From Ochotona curzoniae (Eukaryota > Chordata > Mammalia > Lagomorpha > Ochotonidae), in assembly GCF_017591425.1 (NCBI RefSeq), contig NW_024464918.1, forward strand, positions 25,138,001 through 25,202,000: a stretch of DNA of 64,000 nucleotides, read 5' to 3'. Below, piece by piece: positions 56,890 through 63,699 of this stretch. The translations under genes were made by a program, and so were the position numbers. Numbering within the stretch: position 1 is the first letter of the stretch; each line of letters opens with the position of its first letter. Below the pieces are notes generated by a model. It did not search any database and was not told the origin of the DNA. It worked only from the letters and a program-made list of their open reading frames with translations.

Positions 56890-57288
56890 TGTTGGCAACG
56901 CCCGCGTTGCCAAGTACCCCGAGCCCCGAGTCGAGCGGAGGGACTAGGGTTATGAGACAGACAAGACAGACAACACACAACACACTGAGACTTGTTCCTG
57001 TGAAGTGAAACCTTTATTCAAAGTCAAACTCTCTTATATAGTTTGCTTGGCCCCTCCCAGGATCTTCCCAATGGTTAAGCAACACCTAAGCTCCCCCAAG
57101 GACATGCAAAAAGGGGAAGCAGGAAGGAGGGAAATTGCAGTCAGGACGTGCAAGAATGGGAGGCAGGAAGGAGGGAAATTGCAGTCAAGCCACGGGCTAA
57201 ATGTATCAGGCCATGATTGCCCTTCCTGTTACACCTTGGAGAAACAAGCTGTGCTGTGGAGTTAACCCTTGGGAGACCCGGCCGTGCA
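56890..57288 (-). repeat. 3' LTR of the provirus
   Basis: 399 bp, identical to the other LTR by eye. On the minus strand U3 starts TGCACGGCC and U5 ends GCCAACA. It carries a TATA box (57033-57040), an AATAAA signal (57013-57018), a GT-rich stretch after it (56954-56990), two 44-bp repeats in U3 (57100-57143 and 57144-57187), and a perfect inverted repeat at the U5 end (56892-56901 and 56904-56913). In this copy the AATAAA would end the viral transcript. Confidence 0.97.
57013..57018 (-). terminator. Polyadenylation signal AATAAA (3' LTR)
   Basis: TTTATT on the plus strand reads AATAAA on the minus strand. A GT-rich stretch lies roughly 25-60 bases downstream, as cleavage factors require. 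Confidence 0.85.
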
Positions 57289-57303
57289 TGTCCCCCTTTT
57301 TTT
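57289..57303 (-). promoter_or_regulatory. Polypurine tract (plus-strand primer)
   Basis: On the minus strand seven A, five G and then ACA directly precede the 3' LTR start TGCACGG. A purine run in this position is the RNase H-resistant primer for second-strand synthesis in retroviruses. Confidence 0.92.
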
Positions 57304-57309
57304 GTTTTT

Positions 57310-57445
57310 AATGGACACCTGTCTTAGGTTGTCCAGCAGTCAGTTGATGCCTTACCCGTCATGGGGAGCCCCACCCGGGGCATGTGGGATCCCTGTCTTA
57401 GGTTGGTCATCAGCTCTGCCAGATCTTACCCGTCTCTGGCTGCCC
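57310..57445 (-). promoter_or_regulatory. CTE-like RNA export element
   Basis: Between pol and the 3' LTR the minus strand carries two copies of a motif pair. GACGGGTAAG begins at 57434 and 57360, and CCTAAGACAGG begins at 57402 and 57328. The offset is 32 bases in both copies and the period is 74. These two sequences are the conserved internal-loop bases of the type D retrovirus constitutive transport element, which binds host NXF1/TAP and exports unspliced RNA. The segments between them (57403-57424 and 57329-57350) are largely complementary, with wobbles and a few mismatches, so the whole could fold into one long hairpin with two opposed loops. Position just before the 3' LTR also matches type D viruses. 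Function is inferred. Confidence 0.85.
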
Positions 57446-57776
57446 GTTACACATCATGCTCAACCAGAATTGAGCTCTAGGATTTTCCACAGCTAAAGTC
57501 ATCACAGTTTGTCAAATGATGACCTGCTCCGGGGCTTGTTGCCTGCATAGGTGGCAAAGAGGAGTAAACAGTACTGCAATCATGGCTGTAACATCAGCCC
57601 CATGGCTAAGACTCCGCTCCATTCCTTTAACATCCCTGCTCTCAGTTAATGCCATTTCATGGGGGTAACACATATATGATGTTAAATTGAGGGAGTAGCT
57701 GGAGATCTGCATTTCTCATGGGCAGGATGCCAGGAAGTTGCACCACTGCTGTCAGGGTGTCTTCCTCCCAATGCCT
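57446..57776 (-). other. Pol-to-CTE spacer, site of the missing env
   Basis: About 330 bp separate the pol stop from the CTE-like element. It holds one short frame (57512-57712, 66 codons) with a weak hydrophobic stretch. It could be an env remnant, but I see no fusion peptide, Cys-rich motif, or other Env signature, so I make no such call. No env gene can be placed anywhere in the element. Confidence 0.6.
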
Positions 57777-63298: not shown

Positions 63299-63443
63299 GA
63301 TGTTGGCAACGCCCGCGTTGCCAAGTACCCCGAGCCCCGAGTCGAGCGGAGGGACTAGGGTTATGAGACAGACAAGACAGACAACACACAACACACTGAG
63401 ACTTGTTCCTGTGAAGTGAAACCTTTATTCAAAGTCAAACTCT

Positions 63444-63451
63444 CTTATATA
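63444..63451 (-). promoter_or_regulatory. TATA box of the 5' LTR
   Basis: CTTATATA on the plus strand reads TATATAAG on the minus strand. It is the only good TATA match in the LTR and is placed correctly relative to AATAAA and the leader. Confidence 0.85.
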
Positions 63452-63510
63452 GTTTGCTTGGCCCCTCCCAGGATCTTCCCAATGGTTAAGCAACACCTAA
63501 GCTCCCCCAA

Positions 63511-63598
63511 GGACATGCAAAAAGGGGAAGCAGGAAGGAGGGAAATTGCAGTCAGGACGTGCAAGAATGGGAGGCAGGAAGGAGGGAAATTGCAGTCA
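63511..63598 (-). repeat. Two 44-bp direct repeats in U3 (probable enhancer)
   Basis: The units 63511-63554 and 63555-63598 differ at only a few positions near one end and share a 27-bp block that contains 'caggaaggagggaaattg'. Duplicated U3 blocks commonly hold enhancer sites in retroviruses. The GGAA cores could bind ETS factors, which is an inference. Confidence 0.85.
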
Positions 63599-63699
63599 AG
63601 CCACGGGCTAAATGTATCAGGCCATGATTGCCCTTCCTGTTACACCTTGGAGAAACAAGCTGTGCTGTGGAGTTAACCCTTGGGAGACCCGGCCGTGCA

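What the first reader, a model, noticed from the sequence alone, without database searches (positions are those of the whole stretch)
56890..63699. Very young, fully open env-less betaretrovirus-like provirus
Seen directly: identical 399-bp LTRs, a clean 5-bp target duplication, open gag, pro and pol, and intact priming and processing signals. LTRs are identical at insertion and diverge with time, so zero visible differences over 399 bp point to a recent event. I infer that the locus may be polymorphic (occupied or empty) between animals and that the family may still be active by intracellular retrotransposition, as IAP is in mice. I know of no description of this pika element, but could not search.
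Basis: partly seen in the sequence, partly recalled or inferred. Interest (0 to 1): 0.9.

Follow-up and report, generated by a model that had tools for sequence, protein, structure and literature searches.

The report
Young env-less betaretrovirus-like element family
A mammal-like genome carries a very recently copied, betaretrovirus-like jumping element that has lost its envelope gene but keeps its other genes open; older relatives in the same genome still show remains of the lost envelope.

Summary
On the minus strand lies a 6.8-kb provirus with two identical 399-bp LTRs, a 5-bp target duplication and open gag, pro and pol. It is not alone: in the same genome 16 places, this one included, share an 800-bp RT stretch without a difference (40 of 99 candidates scored), each with its own 3' flank (16 of 16 distinct). 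Gag is open at 0-4 differences in 14 of the 15 others. So a family burst very recently: tens to hundreds of thousands of years ago under assumed mutation rates.

New points. (1) Env was lost: the 488 bp after pol keep a decayed TM remnant, and two relatives (82-83%) keep a decayed env there. (2) That stretch holds a type-D-like constitutive transport element (CTE): boxes and fold fit; support from compensatory changes is moderate. (3) Gag keeps a myristoylation motif and PTAP, unlike IAP as I recall it.

Host species, insertion polymorphism, expression and present activity were not tested. A new member of a known kind: env-less class II ERVs.

The parts
63301..63699 (-). 5' LTR, TGCACG...CCAACA, 399 bp; TATATAA at LTR position 249, AATAAA at 271
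56890..57288 (-). 3' LTR, identical to the 5' LTR (0 of 399)
63700..63704 (.). target-site duplication GTATC (+ strand)
56885..56889 (.). target-site duplication GTATC (+ strand)
63281..63298 (-). primer-binding site, 2 nt after the 5' LTR; fits the 3' end of tRNA-Gln (tRNA sequence recalled)
   Evidence: sequence
63223..63231 (-). consensus splice donor CAGGTAAGT in the leader
63029..63171 (-). leader tandem repeat, about 58 bp with a 29-bp sub-period
61153..63012 (-). gag, 619 aa: MGSAFS start, PTAP at 217, p10, p24, two CCHC knuckles
61345..61351 (-). gag/pro slippery heptamer G GGA AAC in the gag frame
   Evidence: sequence with the frames
60371..61372 (-). pro open frame: dUTPase, aspartic protease, G-patch
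60386..60392 (-). candidate pro/pol slippery heptamer T TTT TTG (last base unusual)
   Evidence: sequence with the frames
57777..60407 (-). pol open frame: RT, thumb, RNase H, integrase
57452..57681 (-). decayed env TM remnant with stops and frame changes
   Evidence: tblastn with a TM piece of relative L047 against these 488 bases only, E 1e-12
57308..57446 (-). CTE-like RNA element: two symmetric internal loops, AAGACA opposite GAC before GGGU
   Evidence: motif compared with SRV-1 half-CTE primers in PMC4330393
57291..57303 (-). polypurine tract before the 3' LTR
   Evidence: sequence

Best explanation
A recent germline copy of a betaretrovirus-like (class II) family that multiplied without env by retrotransposition. 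RNA starts in the 5' LTR (inferred), leaves the nucleus unspliced through the CTE-like element and the cell's NXF1 route (inferred from motif and fold), and is translated to Gag, Gag-Pro and Gag-Pro-Pol by two -1 frameshifts (frames shown, shifting inferred). Gag packages the RNA, a tRNA (Gln by sequence) primes reverse transcription (inferred), and integrase inserts the copy with a 5- or 6-bp duplication (duplications shown). An env-bearing ancestor is still visible: relatives at 82-83% keep a decayed env between pol and the CTE, others keep TM pieces, the young copies a short TM tail. The env loss came before the latest burst.
For: LTR pair 0/399 and duplication. 16 places with an identical 800-bp RT stretch and 16 distinct 3' flanks. 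From RT to the pol stop, six of the 15 other young copies, those fetched, differ from the window at 1 of 13,338 bp in all. Gag: 11 of 15 others identical, 14 of 15 open at 0-4 differences. LTR pairs 0, 0, 2, 1, 1, 5, 1 in seven other copies with a duplication. Env remnant and graded env loss in relatives. CTE: the lowest-energy fold is the two-loop form; first set of 11 rows, 8 of 43 pairs with a change on both sides, 0 of 500 shuffles as high; second set, 14 cells with such a change, 0 of 500, and covariation score 2 of 500.
Against: No RNA, protein or new insertion was shown. Interior identity could be raised by assembly polishing: the interior shows far fewer changes than the LTRs, and one locus (L067) has an error-like spectrum. 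CTE energy is not special (z -1.44, 17 of 200 shuffles as good). The first CTE set held a row (L043) from that error-like locus; with L083 in its place the number of pairs changed on both sides is 7 and 67 of 500 shuffles reach it, and further pair types are no more than in shuffles (479 of 500). C65 and C143 lack a matching duplication. C1366, C1359a, C457 and C1359b have damaged or odd 5' ends, and C1359b is a mosaic: gag 98.9% with 20 mismatches and a gap. The pro/pol slippery site is unusual.
Confidence: 0.82

Rival explanations
1. The copies spread as infectious particles, with env supplied in trans by another family, rather than purely inside the cell.
For: Gag keeps MGSAFS and PTAP and the leader keeps a splice donor. 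In the same genome 27 of 121 matches to a related TM lie in stop-free frames of 500-609 aa (150 of 159 candidates scored); the one fetched reads as a 609-aa frame with a GP41 domain.
Against: The motifs may be leftovers of a recent ancestor. Co-expression and pseudotyping are unknown. It has no env of its own.
Confidence: 0.12
2. The identity reflects assembly homogenisation or gene conversion, and the family is older than it looks.
For: Interior changes (5 over 50,616 bases summed, C1359b gag left out) are far rarer than LTR changes; an error-like locus exists; C65 and C143 have mismatched flanks; C1359b is a mosaic.
Against: All 16 copies have different 3' flanks and 10 of 16 a duplication (8 by script or direct reading; C1366 and C1359a by eye), so they are insertions, not segmental duplications. 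LTRs still differ from copy to copy.
Confidence: 0.12
3. The burst is fixed and now silent: young in sequence but not polymorphic or active.
For: No expression or population data; solo LTRs of like sequence exist (C157, C682).
Against: Identical interiors with more than one source haplotype (gag G277A in three copies) fit very recent copying.
Confidence: 0.3

Closest known systems
MusD (mouse, with ETn)
   Same: Env-less betaretroviral element amplified inside the genome; loss of env linked to amplification (passages of PMC6466679); has its own RNA transport element (passages of PMC11379458).
   Different: MusD's element is a 412-bp MTE with unknown pathway; here a short CTE-like fold. That MusD Gag is changed at its membrane-binding end is recalled. 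No MusD sequence was compared.
IAP (mouse)
   Same: Env-less class II element with germline copying (passages of PMC6466679).
   Different: Gag here begins with a myristoylation motif; IAP Gag's ER signal and tRNA-Phe primer are recalled. No IAP sequence was compared.
Simian type-D retroviruses (SRV/MPMV)
   Same: Pol 48-49% identical to SRV-1, -4, -5 and prosimian RV1; best protease and dUTPase matches are PDB entries 3sqf and 2d4l, recalled as MPMV; CTE boxes.
   Different: No env. The decayed env of the relatives looks unlike the gamma-like env of SRVs (SRV env type; the other half is inferred from its likeness to L082, which has a GP41 domain).
Unnamed proteins P0001 and P0013
   Same: 99% identical Gag (615/619) and Pol: the same family in other sequence data.
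   Different: No host name or context. Four Gag residues differ, of which V93M also occurs in this genome.

Membership tests
Betaretrovirus-like (class II) ERV | gag, pro and pol in three frames with two -1 shifts; dUTPase and G-patch in pro | tested here: met
   (shifting itself not tested)
Betaretrovirus-like (class II) ERV | pol groups with betaretroviruses | tested here: inconclusive
   Among 24 rows chosen by me it forms a clade with P0013-P0015, next to a group holding the SRVs; root for drawing only. MMTV, IAP, MusD and HERV-K were not in the tree. PDB best hits: RT 7sr6, integrase 7usf and 3jca, recalled as HERV-K and MMTV.
Betaretrovirus-like (class II) ERV | TG...CA LTRs and 6-bp duplication (recalled as usual for the group) | tested here: met
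   6 bp at 11 of 16 sites, 5 bp at 2, none at 3. The window itself has 5 bp. C1366 6 bp and C1359a 5 bp by eye.
Env-less intracellularised retrotransposon (IAP/MusD kind) | loss of env with gag-pro-pol kept and copies multiplied | tested here: met
Env-less intracellularised retrotransposon (IAP/MusD kind) | Gag retargeted so that particles stay in the cell (recalled) | tested here: inconclusive
   By motif no sign of it: MGSAFS and PTAP kept. Particle fate cannot be tested here.
IAP | Gag with ER signal instead of myristoylation (recalled) | tested here: not met
   by motif
MPMV/SRV constitutive transport element | two-fold symmetric stem with two internal loops carrying AAGACA | tested here: met
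   In relatives: inner AAGACA in 11 of 11 rows of both sets; outer one in 10 of 11 and 9 of 11, changed in env-bearing L047 and L083
MPMV/SRV constitutive transport element | stem kept by compensatory changes | tested here: inconclusive
   For; mixed (7 pairs, 67 of 500 shuffles as high; 14 cells, 0 of 500). Rows are related.
MPMV/SRV constitutive transport element | binds NXF1 and exports unspliced RNA | not testable with these tools
   needs a reporter assay
Present-day active element | insertion polymorphism or new insertions | not tested
   the empty-site search did not complete (14 tries, last)

The most novel reading that the evidence does not exclude
A betaretrovirus caught in the act of becoming a genome-bound element: env lost in steps still visible in one genome, an old type-D-like CTE kept throughout, Gag still fitted for budding, and copying so recent that it goes on today, perhaps with env lent by a second young family.
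Probability: 0.2. Interest if true: 0.75.

Novelty: new member of a known kind. Interest (0 to 1): 0.5.

Why it matters
IAP and MusD, both of mice, are the standard examples of retroviruses turned intracellular. This family would be a further case, with env-bearing, TM-only and env-less forms side by side in one genome, so that the order of events (export element, env loss, Gag change, burst) can be read. A CTE-like element is already present in the env-bearing relatives, whose env does not look like the gamma-like one of simian type-D viruses; that bears on where type-D CTEs came from.

Tried and rejected
Assembly duplication of the second LTR: rejected (duplication at both ends, same spacing at ten other places). 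tRNA or Rfam features in the window: none by ARAGORN or at the gathering score; Rfam on the 3' stretch at laxer threshold gave two hits with E about 0.5, both far below their gathering scores. Related loci in viral contigs: none confirmed. APOBEC-type hypermutation for the long branch of L067: rejected, all kinds of change are about as common, as in sequencing error. TM pieces of L047: no PDB hit, Pfam only below cut-off. Host genes in the window: 10 of 29 long frames tried in Pfam, one in PDB, none convincing. Literature: Ochotona with endogenous retrovirus (16 papers), pika with betaretrovirus, Ochotona with ERVK; going by the titles and abstract starts listed, none describes this element; a search for pikas with mouse mammary tumor virus failed. 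I recall a paper on MMTV-like elements of pikas; it was not seen. My first count of 1.45 kb of extra env sequence in L047 was corrected to about 1.3 kb, and 'indel only' for C1359b gag to a diverged stretch.

Full report
What is there. On the minus strand lies a provirus with LTRs at 63301-63699 (5') and 56890-57288 (3'), 399 bp each, with no difference between them and GTATC on both outer sides. The duplication is 5 bp. Stop-to-stop frames are gag 63054-61153, pro 61372-60371 and pol 60407-57777, each -1 from the one before. Pfam gives Gag p10, p24 and two zinc knuckles; dUTPase, protease and G-patch; RT, thumb, RNase H and integrase. Gag begins MGSAFS, has PTAP at 217 and two CCHC boxes; DTG, YMDD and DD35E are present (the meaning of these motifs is recalled). 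A G GGA AAC heptamer stands in the gag frame in the gag/pro overlap; the pro/pol candidate T TTT TTG has an unusual last base. The primer-binding site two bases after the 5' LTR fits tRNA-Gln; that tRNA end is recalled.

How young. With 0 of 399 LTR differences the 95% upper age is 1.7 My at 2.2e-9 changes per site and year and 0.75 My at 5e-9; with the open frames 0.87 and 0.38 My (rates, and an indel rate of a tenth, assumed). The family says more. The LTR finds 40 scored places of 916 candidates, all listed at 97% or more; LTR pairs stand 6411 bp apart at the window and ten other places, and 6410 at one. An 800-bp RT stretch is identical at 16 places, this one included, 96-99% at 18 and 83-92% at 6 (40 of 99 candidates scored). 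All 16 have different 3' flanks. From RT to the pol stop, six other young copies, those fetched, show 1 difference in 6 x 2223 bp. In gag the 15 others were all fetched: 11 identical, two with 1 difference, one with 4, and C1359b at 98.9% with 20 mismatches and a gap; 14 of 15 are open. Leaving out C1359b gag, 5 changes over 50,616 bases give about 45,000 years at 2.2e-9 and 20,000 at 5e-9 if the copies form a star. LTR pairs give more: 0 (window), 0, 0, 2, 1, 1, 5 and 1 differences in eight full-length copies with a duplication, about 0.7 and 0.3 My. The gap may come from faster change in methylated LTRs or from assembly polishing that evens out interiors; I cannot tell which. Left out of this LTR count: C65 (1 difference) and C143 (8), without a duplication; C211 and C208, where the contig ends; C735 (0), C1380 and C239 (3), with inner deletions; and the four copies with damaged 5' ends.

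Insertions. Of 16 sites tested by script 11 have a 6-bp duplication, 2 a 5-bp one (one is CCCCC, ambiguous) and 3 none; three of the 6-bp sites are solo LTRs. By eye C1366 has 6 bp and a deletion inside its 5' U3, C1359a has 5 bp with a 5' LTR cut at position 286, and C457 lacks its 5' LTR. In all, 10 of the 16 young copies show a duplication. Gag G277A in three copies and LTR variants at 278-279 show more than one source haplotype.

Where env went. Between pol and the 3' LTR are 488 bp. A TM piece from relative L047 matches them with E 1e-12 (for this short target alone), with stops and frame changes. L047 (RT 83%) has about 1.3 kb more between pol and the shared 3' stretch (from the coordinates), with a decayed env that includes a fusion-peptide-like TM (Fusion_gly below cut-off). 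A second relative, L083 (pol 82%), has the same region with a repeat inserted. L048, L046 and L044 keep TM pieces of differing length. So env was lost from an env-bearing ancestor, apparently in steps. Of the 18 copies at 96-99% in RT, 16 show the short env-less stretch between pol and LTR (L050 and L052 with a deletion inside pol, L056 with one in the stretch); L053 lacks the stretch, and L059 was not read that far. So the loss is older than the latest burst.

A transport element. Window 57446-57308 (minus) holds two GACGGGTAA and two CCTAAGACAGG boxes in alternating order. The lowest-energy fold of the 139 nt is a two-fold symmetric stem with AAGACA in each of two internal loops; forcing the loop pairs changes nothing. 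The energy alone is not special (z -1.44, 17 of 200 shuffles as good). For relatives I took 10 of the 26 loci listed plus the window: 93.1% of cells pair and 8 of 43 pairs show a change on both sides (shuffles 2.7 on average, none of 500 as high; slid controls 0-1; further pair types 88 of 500). One of those rows, L043, comes from the locus with the error-like spectrum. With L083 in its place: 92.3%, 7 pairs (67 of 500 shuffles as high), 14 cells (0 of 500), score 2 of 500, further types 479 of 500, slid controls 0-3; most double changes sit in the env-bearing sisters L047 and L083. PMC4330393 (passages) prints primers for the SRV-1 half-CTE with the same boxes in the same order and says that each symmetric unit, with AAGACA in its internal loop, holds one Tap-p15 (NXF1). 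The element is also in L047 (80%) and L083 (77%), with the outer AAGACA changed in both, so it is older than the env loss.

Kin. Gag: P0001 99% (615 of 619), then P0002 (Condylura) 42% over the full length and shorter matches of up to 51%; 12 hits, 7993 candidates scored. Pol: P0013 99%, P0014 55%, P0015 52%, SRV-4, SRV-1 and prosimian RV1 49%, SRV-5 48%; 386 hits, 120 listed. In a tree of 24 rows chosen by me the element groups with P0013-P0015 next to a group holding the SRVs; MMTV, IAP, MusD and HERV-K were not included. Against matrix protein 2mv4 (recalled as MPMV) the basic residues around its tryptophan 56 are not kept; that this region steers assembly inside the cell is recalled.

Verdict. 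A recent member of a young, multi-copy, env-less class II family: known in kind, and not found described in the three searches. The insertion's polymorphism, its expression and activity and the host's name remain open.

Noticed in passing
L082 (G000:C53:31732300-31734800), ORF 475-2301; places: Another betaretrovirus-like family in the same genome: 27 of 121 TM matches lie in stop-free frames of 500-609 aa; the one fetched has a 609-aa frame with a GP41 domain. It looks young.
   Followed up: partly
L067 (G000:C1376:6425522-6426327) and its downstream stretch L043: An 8% diverged copy groups with the window but shows all kinds of change about alike, as uncorrected sequencing error would; the assembly may have noisy stretches.
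   Followed up: partly
window 63029-63171: A leader tandem repeat of about 58 bp with a 29-bp sub-period between splice donor and gag.
   Followed up: no
L021/L022 (C143) and L005/L006 (C65): Full-length young copies without a matching duplication; in C143 the LTRs differ at 8 places: recombination between copies or a misjoin.
   Followed up: no
L099, L042, L075 (G000:C1359, near 1011250-1018173): A mosaic copy: pol 1 difference from the window, gag 98.9%, 5' LTR 93.9% over part.
   Followed up: partly
L080 (G000:C1359:2128500-2133100): A young copy whose 5' LTR starts at position 286, near the presumed RNA start, yet with a 5-bp duplication by eye.
   Followed up: no
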